In this document: piece by piece, positions 11,406 through 16,707 of the stretch | How positions within the stretch are numbered: the stretch's first letter is position 1 | Layout: each line of letters begins with the position of its first letter | Assembly (NCBI RefSeq): GCF_016862635.1 | Contig: NZ_BONI01000029.1 | Span: forward strand, 35,783-99,782 | Length of the DNA: 64,000 nt | From: Catellatospora coxensis | Lineage (GTDB): Bacteria > Actinomycetota > Actinomycetes > Mycobacteriales > Micromonosporaceae | Direction: 5' to 3' | Made by a program: the position numbers and the translations under genes | The notes under the pieces: generated by a model | Databases searched by the model: none | What the model was told of the DNA's origin: nothing | Seen by the model: only the letters and a program-made list of their open reading frames with translations

Positions 11406-12403
11406 AGCGTGCTCCGCAAAGCCAGGCCCGCGGCGTAGCCGAGGGTGAGGCTGGCGGGGACGGTGACCAGCCAGGCGGTCAGCACGGGGGTGGCGAACTG
11501 CCAGCGGATGCGGCGTACGCCGGTGCTGGCTCCCGCGCCGACCAGCCCCGCCGTGGCGGACTGGGTCATGCTGACGGGCACGCCCATGCCCGCGCTGCCG
11601 AACACCGCGGTGGCCGACGCGACCCCGGCCGTGACCAGGGTCCACGGGCGCTGCGGGGTGAGCCCGCCGGCCGCGCCCCGGGCCATGCGCCGCAGGCTCA
11701 GCACCGCCCCGGCCGCGAACACCAGCGCCGTCGCGCACAGCAGCAGCAGCGGCGGGGCCTGCATGCCGGGGGCCCGGTGGGCGACCCCGAGCGCGACGCC
11801 GACGACGGCGAACATCTTCTGCCCGTCGTTGGCGGCGTAGGCGAGGCTCTGCCCGGCGAACGCGGTGACGTGCGCGTACCGCATCGCGCGGGGCAGCCGG
11901 GACGTGGTGGGCAGGCGACGGGCGGCCAGGCCGAGCAGGTAGCCGAGGCCGCCGCCGAGCAGCGGGGCGAGCGCGGCGACCGCGAGCACGACGGCCAGGG
12001 TGGACCAGGCGGGCGGCACGCCCAGCCCGGCGCCGACCCCGGCCAGGCCGCCGAGCACGGCCAGGGTCACGCTGGTCGGCACCCCGCGCCAGGCCAGGGT
12101 CAGGACGAGGGCCAGCGCGACGCCGACCCCGGCGAGCACGACCAGGGGTCCCCGGACGCCGCCGGCGTCGACGAGGCGGTCGGTGAAGGTGTGCGCGACC
12201 GCGAGTCCGAACAGGGCCGGTCCGGCGATGATCGCGGCGAGCAGCACGGCGAGCACGCCGTAGAGGGGCAGTTCGCGCTGGCGCAGGGCGAGGGCGAGCA
12301 GGGCCGCGCCGTCGTTGGCGCCGCAGACGAAGACGAATCCGGTGGCCAGCATCGCAAAGCCGATCACCACGGCCGACCACCCCCGACTCCACCAGGAGTT
12401 CAC
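11402..12403 (-). CDS. pit: Inorganic phosphate transporter, Pit family
   Basis: The product is 333 aa with about ten membrane helices. The two Pit signatures are present: GANDGAA near residue 28 and AYAANDGQKMF near residue 178, plus GVPVSMTQS in the second repeat. The family carries metal-phosphate with a cation across the plasma membrane. It begins with GTG and leads a two-gene operon with the DUF47 gene. It is divergent from the unknown gene at 12494, with 90 bp between the starts. Confidence 0.92.
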   Translation of the reverse strand: MNSWWSRGWSAVVIGFAMLATGFVFVCGANDGAALLALALRQRELPLYGVLAVLLAAIIAGPALFGLAVAHTFTDRLVDAGGVRGPLVVLAGVGVALALVLTLAWRGVPTSVTLAVLGGLAGVGAGLGVPPAWSTLAVVLAVAALAPLLGGGLGYLLGLAARRLPTTSRLPRAMRYAHVTAFAGQSLAYAANDGQKMFAVVGVALGVAHRAPGMQAPPLLLLCATALVFAAGAVLSLRRMARGAAGGLTPQRPWTLVTAGVASATAVFGSAGMGVPVSMTQSATAGLVGAGASTGVRRIRWQFATPVLTAWLVTVPASLTLGYAAGLALRSTL

Positions 12404-12493: not shown

Positions 12494-13225
12494 ATGGCGA
12501 AGCTGAACCAGATCATCGCGGTCGAGAAGGGCATCAAGAGCCGCTCGTTCCAGGACCTGACCGAGGCCCACCACGCCGTGCAGAAGCCGGCGCTGCTGTC
12601 GGGCATCTCGAGGACATACCAGGCCAAGGACGAGGAGGGCGAGCAGCTGCCGCCGGAGTCCACGAAGGTGCAGACCCGCGCCGAGGACGTGCTGCGCCAG
12701 ATCGGCGTCACCCTGTCGCGGCTGTTCGACGTGACCGCGACCAAGGACGCGACCAACTGCACGGCCCGCGCCGACGTGGTCGTCGACGACCGGGTGCTGC
12801 TGTCCGACGTGCCGGTGACGTACCTGCTGTTCCTGGAGAAGCAGCTCACCGACCTGCACACCTTCGTCAAGAAGCTGCCGGTGCTGGACGCCGCCGAGTC
12901 GTGGGTGTTCAGTGACTCCGCCGACTGCTGGTCCACCGAGCCGGTGCGCACCATCCGCACCAAGAAGGTGCCCCGCAACCACGTCAAGGCCGAGGCGACC
13001 GAGAAGCACCCGGCGCAGGTCGAGGTGTACTACGAGGACATCGCGGTGGGTTACTGGACCACGGTGAAGTTCTCCGGCGCGCTGCCGGCCAAGCGGGTGT
13101 CGACGCTGCTGGAGCGGGTGGAGAAGCTGCAGCAGGCGGTCAAGTTCGCCCGCGAGGAGGCCAACAACGCCGAGGCGGTCGACAAGCACGTCGGCGACCG
13201 CGTCTTCGGTTACCTGTTCGCCTGA
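12494..13225 (+). CDS. Conserved protein of unknown function next to tRNA-like RNAs
   Basis: The product is 243 aa, soluble and charged, with no signal peptide or membrane helix. Visible blocks are LNQIIAVEKGIKSR, LTEAHHAVQKPALLSGISR, TYLLFLEKQLTDLHTF, the Trp-rich AESWVFSDSADCW, and a basic RTIRTKKVPRNHVK patch. I recognise it as a conserved actinobacterial and actinophage protein (I recall the name DUF7873, unverified), with no known function. It is followed at once by a GC hairpin and two circularly permuted tRNA-like RNAs, so a role in binding or maturing them is a reasonable guess. The ATG has a strong GGGAGGA site. Confidence 0.8.
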   Translation: MAKLNQIIAVEKGIKSRSFQDLTEAHHAVQKPALLSGISRTYQAKDEEGEQLPPESTKVQTRAEDVLRQIGVTLSRLFDVTATKDATNCTARADVVVDDRVLLSDVPVTYLLFLEKQLTDLHTFVKKLPVLDAAESWVFSDSADCWSTEPVRTIRTKKVPRNHVKAEATEKHPAQVEVYYEDIAVGYWTTVKFSGALPAKRVSTLLERVEKLQQAVKFAREEANNAEAVDKHVGDRVFGYLFA

Positions 13226-13232
13226 CGAGACT

Positions 13233-13252
13233 CCCCCGCCGGAGGGCGGGGG
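13233..13252 (+). terminator. GC hairpin after the unknown gene
   Basis: CCCCCGCC (13233-13240) pairs with GGCGGGGG (13245-13252) across a GGAG loop, 8 nt after the stop codon. It may attenuate or process the transcript ahead of the tRNA-like cassette. Its 3' arm could also compete for the acceptor strand of the first tRNA-like RNA. Confidence 0.5.
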
Positions 13253-13259
13253 TGCGCGA

Positions 13260-13393
13260 GGAGCGCAAGCTGAAGCTGAAGCCGAAGCTGAACAACGCGG
13301 TGACAGTGTGGGTTCGAGTCCCACCCCCTGCACCACCTGCGGGGGTAGCCCAACTGGCAGAGGCAGCCGCGATCAAACTCAGATTCTCGCTCC
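13260..13393 (+). ncRNA. Circularly permuted tRNA-like RNA, unit 1
   Basis: The tRNA parts occur in the order 3' half then 5' half. They are: anticodon-stem 3' strand CGCGG (13296-13300), TGACAGT, T-arm GTGGG-TTCGAGT-CCCAC (13308-13324), acceptor 3' strand CCCCTGC (13325-13331), a 7-nt ACCACCT loop, acceptor 5' strand GCGGGGG (13339-13345), TA, D-arm GCCC-AACTGGCAG-AGGC (13348-13364), AG, and anticodon-stem 5' strand CCGCG (13367-13371). The acceptor has 7 bp with one G-U, the anticodon stem 5 bp and the T-stem 5 bp. The flanks pair weakly: GGAGCG 13260-13265 with CGCTCC 13388-13393, and GAAGCTGA 13284-13291 with TCAGATTC 13379-13386 (7 of 8). The ends meet at the anticodon loop, so the anticodon is not fixed. 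Confidence 0.75.
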
Positions 13394-13406
13394 AGACTCA
13401 GCATTC

Positions 13407-13567
13407 GCCGCCGAACACCAGGTCGACCGCGTACGGGCGAAATCCCCGGGGTGCCGGTTCGAGCCCGGCCCGCTCCTCTTCCTGGGGCGGTAGTCCAAAC
13501 GGTAGAGACACGGGGTCTTGATACTGACCCGTTCGCTTAAACGTACTGGTGTGTGCAATTCGGTGGC
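13407..13567 (+). ncRNA. Circularly permuted tRNA-like RNA, unit 2
   Basis: This has the same reversed order as unit 1: CCCCG (13444-13448), GGGT, T-arm GCCGG-TTCGAGC-CCGGC (13453-13469), acceptor CCGCTCC (13470-13476), 7-nt loop TCTTCCT, acceptor GGGGCGG (13484-13490), TA, D-arm GTCC-AAACGGTAG-AGAC (13493-13509), A, CGGGG (13511-13515). All stems pair, with one G-U in the acceptor and the same C-A mismatch in the D-stem as unit 1. The flanks form a long stem: GCCGCCGAA 13407-13415 with TTCGGTGGC 13559-13567, CACCA 13416-13420 with TGGTG 13547-13551, GTACG 13431-13435 with CGTAC 13542-13546, and GCGAA 13437-13441 with TTCGC 13532-13536. Confidence 0.78.
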
Positions 13568-13575
13568 ACCCCGAG

Positions 13576-13602
13576 GCCCGGGAGAAGGACAGTCTCCCGG
13601 GC
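13576..13602. terminator. Terminator between RNA cassette and beta-helix gene
   Basis: GCCCGGGAGA (13576-13585) pairs perfectly with TCTCCCGGGC (13593-13602) around a 7-nt loop. It lies 2 nt from the stop of the converging beta-helix gene and would stop transcription from both sides. Confidence 0.85.
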
Positions 13603-13603
13603 T

Positions 13604-14794
13604 TCACCATGTCCGGCGGCAGTCCGTGTCGGCAAAGCCCTTGGCGGCGCCGGAGACGGTGTTGTCGCAGGCGACGACGTTGCCGGCGACGGGCGTCAGG
13701 TGGAATCCCCAGCCCGGGCCGTCGACGGCGGCGGTGTTGGCGGTGAACACGTTGCGGTCGCCCCACCCGTCGGCGACACGGTGGGTCTGGAAGCCGTCGC
13801 CGCGCGAGTGCCGGCCCGTGTTGGCTTTGATCAGCCAGCCGTTGCCCTTCACGTCGACCCACGAGTCGGCGTACGAGCCGGTCATGGCCGCGCCGTCGAA
13901 CGTGTTGGCCTCGATGGTCCCGCCGGTGGTGCCCTCCTTGACGTCGACGGGTTCGGCCGTGGTGGCGCTGATCCGGTTGCCGCGGATCACGTTGCGGTCG
14001 CTGCGGTCGGGCTCGCAGGCGGTGACGTCGCACCAGTTGCTCTGCGCGGTGCCGACGTACACGCCCTCGCCGAACTTCGCCCGGCGCAGGCCGGTGTCGC
14101 GTACGACGCTGTCGCGCACCAGGTTGTCGGAGCTGAAGGCGCGCAGGTGGACCGCCTCGTCGCCGACGTGCTCCACGGTCAGGCCGGTGAGCACGGCGTG
14201 GCTGGTGCGGTCGAGCATGACGCCCTTCTGCGCGTTGCGGACCGTGAACCCGGTCAGCCGCCAGTGGTCCGCGCCGTCGAGGTGCAGGGCGTACCCGTGG
14301 CCGGTGCCCCCGCCGTCGAGCACCGCGCCGCGTCCGCCGCACAGGTGCACGGGTTTTCCAGCGGTGCCGGCGACGGTGGCGGCGAAGCGGCCCGCGTACA
14401 CCCCGTCCGCGAGCCTGATACTGTCCCCCGGCCGGGCCCGCGCCAGCGCGCCGGCCAGCGCCGACCCGTCTGCCACGGTCACCGTCGCGGGCGGGCAGGC
14501 CGCCGTGGCCCGGCTCGGCGTCGAGCCCGCGGCGGACCCGGCTCGGCCGGCGTCGGGTGCCGGGGTGGCTCCGGACGCCGCACCGGGATGCGGTCCCAGG
14601 CATCCGCCCAGCGCCATGAGCAGCAGCACGACCATCCCCGCCAGCAGGGACGTCGCCACGAACGGCAGCATTGGACCCCGGCCGCGCCGACGTGACCCGA
14701 GGCGGACTCCGTCGGCCGCCGCGACGCGCGCCGGCGAGGCCGGGCGGGGCGAGGCGTGCCGAGGGCTCGGCCGGCGCGGGGACGGTGCGGTCAT
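13604..14794 (-). CDS. Secreted right-handed parallel beta-helix protein
   Basis: The product is 396 aa. A basic N-terminus is followed by a hydrophobic segment ending LLMALGGC (about residues 43-66), compatible with a lipoprotein signal. From residue 100 the chain shows coils of a polysaccharide lyase or epimerase-like beta-helix (DSIRLADGVYAGRF, NVIRGNRISA, NVFTANTAAVDG), with a C-terminal pair CDNTVSG and TDCRRTW. Its ATG overlaps the stop of the upstream beta-helix gene by 4 nt. With the glycosyltransferase two genes up, it probably modifies or trims an extracellular polysaccharide; no catalytic residues can be assigned. Confidence 0.8.
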   Translation of the reverse strand: MTAPSPRRPSPRHASPRPASPARVAAADGVRLGSRRRGRGPMLPFVATSLLAGMVVLLLMALGGCLGPHPGAASGATPAPDAGRAGSAAGSTPSRATAACPPATVTVADGSALAGALARARPGDSIRLADGVYAGRFAATVAGTAGKPVHLCGGRGAVLDGGGTGHGYALHLDGADHWRLTGFTVRNAQKGVMLDRTSHAVLTGLTVEHVGDEAVHLRAFSSDNLVRDSVVRDTGLRRAKFGEGVYVGTAQSNWCDVTACEPDRSDRNVIRGNRISATTAEPVDVKEGTTGGTIEANTFDGAAMTGSYADSWVDVKGNGWLIKANTGRHSRGDGFQTHRVADGWGDRNVFTANTAAVDGPGWGFHLTPVAGNVVACDNTVSGAAKGFADTDCRRTW

Positions 14795-16707
14795 TCGGCC
14801 ATCACCACCCGGGCCCGGCCACGGGCCGTCTCGCGCGGGCTGGGCCGGCCGGGCTCGGACCGCCCCGGCGACGGCCCACCGGGGAACAGCGGTTTGGTCG
14901 CCGCGTACGGGTGGCCGTGGTCGTCGGGGCGGCGGCGGAACGCCAGCACGACGATGAGCAGCAGGATCGCGGTCCACAGCAGCGTCATCGGGCTGGCGTA
15001 GTGGCGCACCCGGGCCCACAGCGTGCTGGTGTCCAGCCACGCGTCGGTCTGGTTGTCGCGCACCGTGAGCCTGCCCTCGGCGCGGCCGGTGTCCACCGCG
15101 CTGGGGCCGATGCCGGTGATCGCGTTGCCGGCGGCGACCGAGCCGCCGACCGCGCCGACGAAGGTGACGCCGTGGCTGTTCGCGTCGTGGATGGTGTTGC
15201 CGCGCACCTCGGCGACGGAGTCGCGCACGTACACCCCGGTCCGGGTGCTCTCGATGAGGTTGCCGGTGATGCGGGCCCCGGCGACGCCGTCGCGGATCGC
15301 GATCGCCTGGCGGCGCTGGTCGGAGAGCCGGTTGGCGGTGAGGGTCAGGTCGCGCGTGCCGAGCCGGGCCACGATGCCCATGTCGCCGCCCTCGATCTGG
15401 TTCTCCTGGATGCTGACGTTCAGCCCGCCCAGGATCTCGAAGCCGTAGTGGCCGTTGCCGCGGGCGGTGCTGTGCGAGACCGTGTTCGCGCCGTAGCTGG
15501 CGGTGGACTGGCCGGACGCCGAGGGCCCGTCGGCCAGCGGCCGCCCGCTGAGGGTGAACCCGTTGCCGCCGTTGCGTTCGGCGGTCGTGTTGGTGATGCG
15601 GACCTGCTGGGTGGCCCGGGACAGCAGGAAGCCGTCGCCGCCGTTGTGCTGGGACACGGTGCGTTCGATGACCGCGTTGGTGGCGAAGCGGTGCAGCACC
15701 AGGCCGTGCTGCAGGCTGTCGCGCACCTTCGTGTCGGTGATCTTGATACCGTCGGCGCTGGACACGAACAGCCCGTACGCGTTGCCGACGAACTCGCTGT
15801 TGCCGATGGTCCCGGACACGTAGGACAGGCTCGGCACGGTGAACCGGCTGTCCGGGCTGGCCACCCGGCCCCCGGACGAGATGCGCACCTCGCCGGGCAG
15901 GATCCGGCCGGGCGTCGCGGCGCTCGGCCCCTCGACCGCGCCGGTGTCGGGCCGGTCGGTGCCGGTCAGGCTGACCCCGCCGGTGCGGCCACTCCAGAAC
16001 CCGAGATGCGACGCGCGGGCATGGCTCATGGCGAAGTTGCCGCCGATCGCCCGCAGGTAGGCCCGTCCGTCACGGACGTCGGTGTCGGGTTTGCCGGTAC
16101 GCGGATCCCAGCTGGTCACGCGCACCGGGGCCTGCTTGGTGCCCGCCAGGGTCAGGCCGCCGCCGAACGACACGATCGCCACGAAGCCGCTGCTGCGGCT
16201 GGCCAGGCGCAGTTCCAGGCCGCCGGGGTGGGCCAGCTTCAGCCGCGCCCCGGAGTTGAGGTAGATGTTCTCGGTCAGCAGGTACGCGCCCTGCTGCTGG
16301 CGGACGAACGTCTGCGGGGCGAGCCGCAGCAGGTCGTCGACCGTGTACGCGGCGGTGCGCGCGGTCAGCACCAGCGTGTAGCCGCCGGCGGTGTCGAGCC
16401 GGTAGGGCCGGTCCCACTTCTGCGTGGTGCTGCCCGGGGCCCGGCTGAGCAGATCACGCAGCGGGGCGACCGCGGTGACCGCCCTGACCTGGTTGAGCCA
16501 CCGGTCCTCGGCCGCCACCAGCGCGGCCTGCCGCTCGGCATCGGCCGGCGCGGCTTCGGCGGCGGCGGCGCGATGGGCCGCGGGTCGGGCCGCGGACGAG
16601 GGCGCGGCGGATGCGCCGAACGCGGCGAGCAGCACGGCGGCCGTGGCGGCACCGGCGAGCGCGGACGCGACCCGCCGAAAGGGCGCGGCTGCCCGGGGCC
16701 GGTTCAT
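14791..16707 (-). CDS. Membrane-anchored parallel beta-helix protein (epimerase/lyase-like)
   Basis: The product is 638 aa. It has an N-terminal signal or anchor (AGAATAAVLLAAFGASAA, about residues 17-34), a helical Ala-rich region, then a long parallel beta-helix (about residues 130-560) built from Asn/Gly coils such as SQHNGGDGFLLSR, TAERNGGNGFTLSG and GNGHYGFEI. A C-terminal membrane helix (LLWTAILLLIVVLAFRRR) and a basic tail follow. The architecture recalls AlgG-type mannuronan epimerases and related carbohydrate-active beta-helices. It overlaps the glycosyltransferase stop and the next beta-helix start by 4 nt each. The polymer and the reaction are unknown. Confidence 0.82.
   Translation of the reverse strand: MNRPRAAAPFRRVASALAGAATAAVLLAAFGASAAPSSAARPAAHRAAAAEAAPADAERQAALVAAEDRWLNQVRAVTAVAPLRDLLSRAPGSTTQKWDRPYRLDTAGGYTLVLTARTAAYTVDDLLRLAPQTFVRQQQGAYLLTENIYLNSGARLKLAHPGGLELRLASRSSGFVAIVSFGGGLTLAGTKQAPVRVTSWDPRTGKPDTDVRDGRAYLRAIGGNFAMSHARASHLGFWSGRTGGVSLTGTDRPDTGAVEGPSAATPGRILPGEVRISSGGRVASPDSRFTVPSLSYVSGTIGNSEFVGNAYGLFVSSADGIKITDTKVRDSLQHGLVLHRFATNAVIERTVSQHNGGDGFLLSRATQQVRITNTTAERNGGNGFTLSGRPLADGPSASGQSTASYGANTVSHSTARGNGHYGFEILGGLNVSIQENQIEGGDMGIVARLGTRDLTLTANRLSDQRRQAIAIRDGVAGARITGNLIESTRTGVYVRDSVAEVRGNTIHDANSHGVTFVGAVGGSVAAGNAITGIGPSAVDTGRAEGRLTVRDNQTDAWLDTSTLWARVRHYASPMTLLWTAILLLIVVLAFRRRPDDHGHPYAATKPLFPGGPSPGRSEPGRPSPRETARGRARVVMAE

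What the first reader, a model, noticed from the sequence alone, without database searches (positions are those of the whole stretch)
13296..13515. Two tRNA-like RNAs with reversed (circularly permuted) halves
Seen directly: at 13296-13371 and 13444-13515 every tRNA arm can be formed, but the T-arm/acceptor-3' half comes before the acceptor-5'/D-arm half. Acceptor stems of 7 bp (each with one G-U), anticodon stems of 5 bp, T-stems of 5 bp with TTCGAGT/TTCGAGC loops, and 9-nt D-loops containing GG all fit, and both units share the same layout. Circularly permuted tRNA genes are established in some algae and archaea. Inference: these are permuted tRNAs or tRNA mimics, a form I would not expect from ordinary annotation.
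Basis: partly seen in the sequence, partly recalled or inferred. Interest (0 to 1): 0.95.

Follow-up and report, generated by a model that had tools for sequence, protein, structure and literature searches.

The report
Twin tRNA-mimic RNA beside DUF7873
Just downstream of a gene of unknown function, this actinobacterium, many relatives and many phages carry a conserved sequence whose base-pairing pattern spells two tRNA look-alikes with their halves in swapped order; it is predicted to be a non-coding RNA that likely partners the neighbouring protein and would hold or distract tRNA-handling enzymes, rather than becoming tRNA.

Summary
Units 13296-13371 and 13444-13515 form full tRNA cores in permuted order; a perfect-stem descriptor gives 0 hits in 60 shuffles of the window. 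They are arms of one conserved ~340-nt element directly downstream of a DUF7873 gene (12494-13225). In 41 relatives RNAalifold, without hints, recovers the T, acceptor and D stems of both mimics (not their anticodon-position stems) and three further helices; 50 of 61 pairs show double changes. In 150 Streptomyces genomes DUF7873 and the RNA occur in exactly the same 69. In 4 of 9 phage records viewed the module sits in a tRNA array. It is not a permuted tRNA gene: no common anticodon loop, flanks form their own helices, and in 12 of 80 genome loci mimic 1 is a plain hairpin. The closest known RNA is YrlA, the tRNA-mimicking bacterial Y RNA (27.9 and 19.3 bits, cut-off 69). Yet Ro60 is not its neighbour and 28 of the 69 genomes have no Ro60 match. 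Best reading: a Ro60-independent, Y-RNA-like scaffold or decoy paired with DUF7873. Expression, binding and function are untested.

The parts
12494..13225 (+). DUF7873 (PF25283) coding sequence, 243 aa; constant neighbour and likely protein partner of the RNA
   Evidence: Pfam E 3.2e-119; one copy in the genome; 7635 homologues among 7998 candidates scored; occurs in exactly the same 69 of 150 Streptomyces genomes as the RNA
13233..13267 (+). 5' leader of two hairpins (13233-13252 and 13253-13267) before arm 1; whether they belong to the RNA is inferred
   Evidence: minimum-free-energy fold; similar GC-rich stretches in many relatives, read by eye
13269..13291 (+). 5' strand of the irregular basal stem of arm 1 (GCTGA 13269-13273 ... 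CTGA 13288-13291)
   Evidence: RNAalifold pairs the outer part; pair counts 93.7% and 86.6% of cells paired, modest covariation; MFE fold
13296..13371 (+). tRNA mimic 1, permuted, open at the anticodon stem; acceptor strands joined by ACCA plus 3 nt; a plain hairpin in 12 of 80 genome loci
13379..13402 (+). 3' strand of the basal stem of arm 1 (TCAG 13379-13382 ... TCAGC 13398-13402)
13407..13419 (+). 5' strands of stems A (GCCGCCGAA) and B (CACC) of arm 2
   Evidence: covarying with 13548-13567
13429..13437 (+). 5' strand of stem C of arm 2 (GCGTACGGG)
   Evidence: 9 of 9 pairs with double changes, 91.3% of cells paired
13444..13515 (+). tRNA mimic 2, permuted; found with model R1 (84-118 bits) in 79 of 80 DUF7873 genome loci
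13528..13543 (+). 3' strand of stem C (CCCGTTCGC) and the conserved TTAAACG linker
13548..13567 (+). 3' strands of stems B and A
13573..13605 (+). 3' hairpin, 13-bp stem and 7-nt loop AGGACAG; probable 3' end of the RNA (no U-tract, so not a classical terminator)
   Evidence: loop matches GG[AC][TCA]A in 54 of 78 relatives in which a hairpin was picked; no terminator-like site found

Best explanation
The region holds a conserved two-armed tRNA-mimic element that is the constant neighbour of a DUF7873 gene in bacteria; it is predicted to be transcribed, and the RNA likely binds the DUF7873 protein to form a ribonucleoprotein. Shown: each arm is a basal stem capped by a tRNA core written in permuted order (T-arm, acceptor, D-arm), so that the arm grows out of the position of the anticodon stem, as in bacterial Y RNAs; arm 2 is kept in 79 of 80 genome loci, arm 1 can be reduced to a hairpin; the element co-occurs one-to-one with DUF7873 in Streptomyces and not with Ro60. 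Inferred: the stems and the unpaired joints (such as TTAAACG) would be held by DUF7873, in the place Ro60 has in Y RNPs; the tRNA cores, with T-loop and D-loop residues intact, would dock proteins that read the tRNA elbow and acceptor (tRNA-modifying or processing enzymes, PNPase-like nucleases, or tRNA-cutting defence enzymes), tethering or titrating them. The acceptor linkers (4-56 nt, with a CCA in a third of units) may be trimmed by tRNA-processing enzymes; that is untested.
For: Structure: de novo RNAalifold and pair counts; tRNA core positions T8, T54-T55-C56, A58, G18-G19 and A21 nearly invariant in 41 RNAs. Link to DUF7873: 69 of 69 against 0 of 81 in Streptomyces; 6 of 6 at >60 bits against 0 of 240 in 246 actinobacterial genomes; 79 of 80 genome loci (29 of these trained the model, 50 of the 51 others hit at 87 bits or more). 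No other neighbouring frame is shared by more than 4 of 39 diverse loci. Y-RNA-like design: YrlA is the best Rfam match and spans both units full length, below cut-off; this genome's Ro60-linked RNAs show the same permuted units. Arm 1 is a hairpin in 12 of 80 loci. 4 of 9 phage records viewed have the module within a tRNA array.
Against: No transcript, binding or phenotype data were available. The predicted DUF7873 fold (pLDDT 91) matches no RNA-binding fold convincingly, so RNA binding rests on synteny alone. In viruses the link is looser: of 13 viral loci given to the model 11 hit at 60 bits or more (8 of them trained it), of 11 phage/plasmid records 7 (3 trained it); L085 has DUF7873 without a detectable RNA, Rhizobium, Vibrio and Klebsiella phages give only 27-42 bits, and in the Microcoleus phage weak units lie about 2 kb away. 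RNAalifold does not recover the anticodon-position stems; in the plain alignment these pair in 61% and 68% of cells and the D-stem of unit 2 as first written in 30% (79% and 87% for unit 2 in the second alignment). Arm 1's basal stem is conserved mostly in sequence and its covariation is modest. The single-sequence fold is unremarkable (z -2.87) and does not form mimic 1. A cis-regulatory 3' element would give the same synteny.
Confidence: 0.62

Rival explanations
1. A decoy or antidefence element: the mimics titrate host or phage nucleases that attack tRNA, and DUF7873 stabilises or delivers the RNA. Phages would carry it within tRNA arrays to protect their tRNAs.
For: In 4 of 9 phage records viewed the module lies inside a tRNA array and in others a few tRNAs are near; patchy distribution, 69 of 150 Streptomyces and 6 of 246 actinobacteria, also 4 plasmid records; tRNA arrays are called a putative antidefense system (PMC12803027, start of abstract in the listing).
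Against: The anticodon loop, the usual target of tRNA nucleases (recalled), is missing from the mimics; no shared defence neighbour among 39 loci; two of nine phage records show no annotated tRNA near. Compatible with the best explanation.
Confidence: 0.22
2. A true Y RNA that works with Ro60 in trans, only encoded elsewhere.
For: Same permuted tRNA-like domain as the genome's Ro60-linked RNAs; Rfam YrlA matches 27.9 and 19.3 bits; the own genome does have one Ro60 gene, as do 41 of 69 Streptomyces with the RNA; two viral loci carry both.
Against: 28 of 69 Streptomyces genomes with the RNA have no TROVE match, and DUF7873 x TROVE is not associated, 41/28 against 39/42, P 0.19; TACTTC, seen beside 11 of 14 Ro60-linked units (1 of the 2 in this genome), occurs in 1 of 98 DUF7873 RNAs, and there in the 3' hairpin of L133.
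Confidence: 0.1
3. Circularly permuted tRNA genes: the transcript is joined in the anticodon loop and cut at the acceptor linker to give two tRNAs.
For: tRNA core positions and, in 59 of 183 units, an encoded NCCA are kept; the layout equals algal and archaeal permuted genes (listing and recall).
Against: Flanks form conserved helices A, B, C with covariation; no consistent anticodon (by eye); mimic 1 is a hairpin in 12 of 80 genome loci; ordinary tRNA genes for 19 amino acids (Phe not seen, one tRNA cluster runs to a contig end); splicing-type tRNA processing is not known in actinobacteria (recalled).
Confidence: 0.03
4. A cis-acting 3' element of the DUF7873 mRNA (stability or feedback control) with no role of its own.
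For: Downstream on the same strand in all 69 genomes, the model match starting 154-359 nt after the DUF7873 match; no promoter found between (E. coli-type consensus only).
Against: Size and elaboration, two tRNA cores with tertiary positions intact; in a Ktedonobacterales genome it starts roughly 480 nt away and in one phage weak units lie about 2 kb away.
Confidence: 0.06
5. Chance, att-site remnants or tandem ordinary tRNA genes.
For: Tandem or neighbouring tRNA genes do give weak model hits elsewhere: 7 of 8 such hits looked at (33-42 bits and one of 29.8) lie on tRNA pairs.
Against: No ordinary tRNA here; 0 hits in shuffles and strong covariation.
Confidence: 0.01

Closest known systems
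YrlA / bacterial Y RNAs (Rfam RF02553), partners of Ro60 (Rsr)
   Same: Basal stem formed by the two ends, capped by a tRNA-like domain of D, T and acceptor arms (passages of PMC8394870); the Ro60-linked units read here have the same permuted order with the acceptor closed by a linker, and several stand in pairs.
   Different: Partner gene is DUF7873, not Ro60; two mimics in one ~340-nt element with further conserved helices A-C and TTAAACG; Rfam score far below cut-off (so is that of this genome's Ro60-linked RNAs); TACTTC of most Ro60-linked units absent from 97 of 98; occurs in genomes without a Ro60 match.
Circularly permuted tRNA genes (algae, archaea)
   Same: Order of halves: T-arm/acceptor half before acceptor/D-arm half, break in the anticodon region, linker between acceptor strands.
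   Different: No reconstructed anticodon loop; flanks are conserved structure; domain 1 can be a plain hairpin. Compared from recall and the listing.
tmRNA (including two-piece permuted tmRNA)
   Same: Non-coding RNA with a tRNA-like domain whose anticodon arm is replaced by a longer helix (recalled).
   Different: D-arm complete, two mimics, Rfam tmRNA only 10.3 bits against a cut-off of 47.
GOLLD/ROOL large RNAs of phage tRNA arrays
   Same: Structured non-coding RNAs found within tRNA arrays (GOLLD in Mycobacterium tRNA arrays is cited in PMC9569102, passage; otherwise recalled).
   Different: Much larger and without mimics of this kind (recalled); no Rfam match here at gathering score.

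Membership tests
Bacterial Y RNA (YrlA) | tRNA-like domain of T, acceptor and D arms, permuted, open at the anticodon side | tested here: met
   same layout in this genome's Ro60-linked units
Bacterial Y RNA (YrlA) | Basal stem from the two ends of the domain | tested here: met
   arm 2 stems A-C strongly covarying; arm 1 stem conserved, modest covariation
Bacterial Y RNA (YrlA) | Encoded beside a Ro60/TROVE gene | tested here: not met
   TROVE lies on another contig; tblastn with that protein finds TROVE in 2 of the 99 loci; no association in 150 Streptomyces
Bacterial Y RNA (YrlA) | Score above the Rfam RF02553 gathering cut-off of 69 bits | tested here: not met
   27.9 and 19.3 bits; but the Ro60-linked RNAs of this genome also fail, 43.4 and 27.5 bits, so the test is not sharp
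Bacterial Y RNA (YrlA) | Sequence signature of Ro60-linked Y RNAs (TACTTC near the basal stem; derived here, not from the literature) | tested here: not met
   11 of 14 Ro60-linked units (1 of 2 in this genome) against 0 of 93 loci in 420 nt after the stop and 1 of 98 RNAs over the whole element, in the 3' hairpin of L133
Bacterial Y RNA (YrlA) | Binds Ro60 | not testable with these tools
   needs pull-down or gel shift
Circularly permuted tRNA gene | Acceptor/D half follows T/acceptor half with all tRNA stems | tested here: met
Circularly permuted tRNA gene | Joined anticodon loop of 7 nt with T33 and a constant anticodon among orthologues | tested here: not met
   sequences next to the stems vary, unit 2 has no T33 in the window, and they continue into helices; read by eye from the alignment
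Circularly permuted tRNA gene | Mature joined tRNA in the cell | not testable with these tools
   needs RNA sequencing
tmRNA | tmRNA match by ARAGORN or Rfam | tested here: not met
   ARAGORN finds no tmRNA in the window; Rfam 10.3 bits against a cut-off of 47
DUF7873 (PF25283) protein | Pfam profile over the curated cut-off, full length | tested here: met
   397.5 bits against 27, residues 1-242

The most novel reading that the evidence does not exclude
A second, Ro60-independent class of Y-RNA-like ribonucleoprotein: DUF7873 and its twin tRNA-mimic RNA form a dedicated two-part machine, spread by tRNA-array phages, that grips tRNA enzymes or tRNA-cutting defence nucleases through the mimicked tRNA elbows and so controls tRNA damage, repair or decay.
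Probability: 0.45. Interest if true: 0.92.

Novelty: new variant of a known kind. Interest (0 to 1): 0.8.

Why it matters
In the papers I could see, tRNA mimicry by bacterial Y RNAs is described only with Ro60. Here the same permuted design is tied one-to-one, in bacteria, to an unrelated protein family with more than 7600 homologues and no assigned function, and it recurs in phages of actinobacteria, cyanobacteria and others. It gives DUF7873 a testable role, gives a Y-like RNA a new partner, and makes the open question of what the tRNA-like domain of Y RNAs is for addressable in a system without Ro60. The natural series in which arm 1 is a hairpin while arm 2 stays is a ready-made domain-deletion experiment.

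Tried and rejected
Rejected: ordinary or degenerate tRNA genes, chance, permuted tRNA genes (see rivals), tmRNA, genuine Ro60 Y RNA.

Literature: searches in the held library: 0 papers name DUF7873, and I saw none in the listings on permuted tRNA-like RNAs apart from Ro60; most subscription papers are not held. Seen as passages: PMC8394870, PMC7790460, PMC7824862, PMC9569102. Seen only as listing or start of abstract: PMC3978253, PMC3218864, PMC12803027. Chen 2014 (10.1261/rna.047241.114) and Wang 2018 (10.1016/j.str.2018.09.001) were not held; what I say of them comes from those passages and recall.

Full report
WHAT IS THERE. ARAGORN and Rfam at its own cut-offs see nothing in the window. 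A descriptor for a permuted cloverleaf with all stems perfect fires twice in the 64-kb window, at these two places, and never in 60 dinucleotide shuffles on both strands.

CONTEXT. The gene just upstream, 12494-13225, is DUF7873 (PF25283, 397.5 bits), present once in this genome, whose nearest relatives are Catellatospora. Relatives were fetched: 80 genome loci (the best 80 of at least 555) and 19 viral loci. In 92 of these 99 (7 viral loci left out as near-duplicates or truncated) the perfect descriptor gives 128 hits in the 900 nt downstream of the gene and 1 elsewhere in 2.08 Mb; 84 of 92 have at least one unit. By comparison the single far hit is in L094, just before a Ro60 gene.

ONE ELEMENT, TWO ARMS. 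Reading the downstream regions side by side showed constant blocks around and between the units. I hand-picked 52 loci with both units located, leaving out those without unit 1 and many with long unit-1 linkers, kept 41 after removing near-duplicates and aligned them by sequence alone (A2). RNAalifold, given no hint, recovers T, acceptor and D stems of both units, part of the basal stem of arm 1, three helices that carry unit 2 (A in part, B, C) and part of the 3' hairpin, but not the two anticodon-position stems; 50 of 61 pairs have at least one sequence with both sides changed. For the structure as I wrote it, 86.7% of cells pair against 69.6% in shuffles, and the covariation score is 0.472 against 0.163, 0 of 500 shuffles reaching it; sliding the partner by 1-3 columns drops pairing to 41-49%. 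For unit 2 with helix C alone (A3) the score is 0.667 against 0.216. Weak spots: in A2 the anticodon-position stems pair in only 61% and 68% of cells and the D-stem of unit 2 as first written in 30%; in A3 they reach 79% and 87%. With register freed, the anticodon-position stem is 5/5 in 91 of 130 distinct units against a shuffled mean of 21 and maximum of 33 in 500. The tRNA core is intact: in 41 RNAs (unit 1, unit 2) T8 41 and 40, TTC of the T-loop 41 and 40, A58 41 and 39, G19 and A21 at least 40. The acceptor linker varies from 4 to 56 nt among units found with links up to 59, and an NCCA follows the acceptor in 59 of 183 units.

LINK TO DUF7873. A covariance model of unit 2 plus helix C (R1) finds a full-length match of 84-118 bits in 79 of 80 DUF7873 genome loci; the exception, L030, has an insertion of about 130 nt in the acceptor linker and scores 25.7 bits. 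29 of these loci trained the model; of the 51 others 50 match at 87 bits or more. Among 246 actinobacterial genomes the six with DUF7873 are the only ones above 60 bits. Among 150 Streptomyces genomes DUF7873 and the RNA (E up to 1e-8) occur in the same 69, on the same contig and strand, 154-359 nt apart. Among 39 diverse loci no other frame of 90 aa or more was shared by more than 4 (the Ro60 frame of L094 matches L088 and, weakly over 88 aa, L142). In viruses the link is looser: 11 of 13 viral loci (8 of them used in training) and 7 of 11 phage/plasmid records (3 used in training) match at 60 bits or more; L085 shows none, L100 none (its gene match is partial), Rhizobium, Vibrio and Klebsiella phages give 27-42 bits, and in a Microcoleus phage weak units lie about 2 kb away. 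In 4 of 9 phage records viewed (Arthrobacter Mimi, Gordonia Phendrix, Rhodococcus NiceHouse, Rhizobium TM21B) the module stands in a tRNA array; the other five show two or no annotated tRNAs nearby.

RELATION TO Y RNA. The genome's only Ro60/TROVE match, on another contig, is preceded by two units of the same permuted layout, as are several TROVE genes of Streptomyces (not all: the descriptor saw none at L121 and none at L123). R1 finds four places at E below 1e-3 in the 9.35-Mb genome: the two units here and those two; the next, E 0.036, spans two neighbouring ordinary tRNA genes. Rfam's YrlA family, always below its cut-off of 69 bits, matches over its full length both units here (27.9 and 19.3 bits) and both units of a plasmid relative (24.7 and 24.5), and the Ro60-linked RNAs (43.4 full length and 27.5 partial), but not a divergent phage copy (L097). 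Published descriptions of YrlA as a basal stem plus a tRNA-like domain of D, T and acceptor arms (passages) fit. But Ro60 is not the constant partner: TROVE is found in 41 of the 69 genomes with the RNA and in 39 of the 81 without (P 0.19). TACTTC, seen beside 11 of 14 Ro60-linked units though only 1 of the 2 in this genome, occurs in 1 of 98 DUF7873 RNAs, in a 3' hairpin. I therefore say it works like a Y RNA and do not file it as one.

WHY NOT A tRNA. The sequences at the open ends do not make a common anticodon loop but continue into helices. Of 14 genome loci in which unit 1 was not located, 12 (L016, L033, L042, L043, L053, L058, L059, L061, L065, L066, L074, L081) fold as a plain hairpin on the same basal stem; L005 keeps a unit with an altered acceptor and L030 was not folded. 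In several phages mimic 1 instead carries an extra hairpin between D-arm and stem, as if derived from a long-arm tRNA. The genome has 55 tRNA matches, covering 19 amino acids by ARAGORN; Phe was not seen, with a tRNA cluster at the end of contig C134.

MECHANISM. Shown: pairing pattern, conservation, synteny. Inferred: transcription, DUF7873 binding, docking or titration of tRNA-reading proteins. AlphaFold2 gives a confident DUF7873 model of long helices and beta hairpins (pLDDT 91) without a useful structural match; conserved K158, H172-P173-A174-Q175 and A219-R220-E221 are candidates for an RNA-binding or catalytic surface.

VERDICT. Real, conserved and unannotated; a Ro60-independent relative in design of tRNA-mimicking Y RNAs with a new likely protein partner. 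Function untested.

Noticed in passing
L242 5432-5496, minus strand (genome G075, contig C16): An orphan permuted tRNA mimic (R1 40.8 bits; YrlA 30.7 bits full length) in a genome where neither a DUF7873 nor a TROVE match was found; ARAGORN sees no tRNA. Frames nearby match DUF4379/DUF559 and an AAA_21 ATPase, others no Pfam family. Possibly a third partner for such RNAs.
   Followed up: partly
13573-13605 and the same place in relatives: The 3' hairpin has a loop with GG[AC][TCA]A in 54 of 78 relatives (CGGCTAC, AGGCTAC, TGGATAC ...) although the stem varies; it resembles the GGNTAC part of the Ro60-linked GGNTACTTC sequence.
   Followed up: partly
L118 around 11647-11876, minus strand (own genome, contig C7): Two unannotated Y-RNA-like permuted units just upstream of the Ro60/TROVE gene; Streptomyces TROVE loci L119, L120, L122, L124, L125 look alike.
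   Followed up: partly
L094 6741-10304: A viral contig that carries both the DUF7873 RNA and, 1-3 kb on, three Y-RNA-like units followed by a Ro60 gene.
   Followed up: partly
L088, L090, L092, L095, L097, L098, L099: Mimic 1 of these phages has an extra hairpin between D-arm and the open stem, where a long-arm tRNA has its anticodon arm (read by eye).
   Followed up: no
L030 6988-7180: The acceptor linker of mimic 2 holds an insertion of about 130 nt, showing how freely this end can vary.
   Followed up: no
model m1550286d1520 (DUF7873): The one viral structure match with high probability is an uncharacterised protein of uncultured phage cr118_1 (crAss-like, recalled): A0A7M1RW91, probability 1.00, TM 0.46/0.61, E 0.032.
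   Followed up: no
L085 6729-7150: A viral DUF7873 gene with no detectable RNA downstream.
   Followed up: no
L211-L214, L216-L218 (other genomes): Neighbouring ordinary tRNA genes (Asn-Asn, Val-Val, Gly-Gly and mixed pairs) give weak hits to a permuted model, a confounder for any such scan.
   Followed up: yes
window 13604-15040, minus strand: The next gene is a beta-helix protein with a weak NosD match, convergent with the RNA.
   Followed up: no
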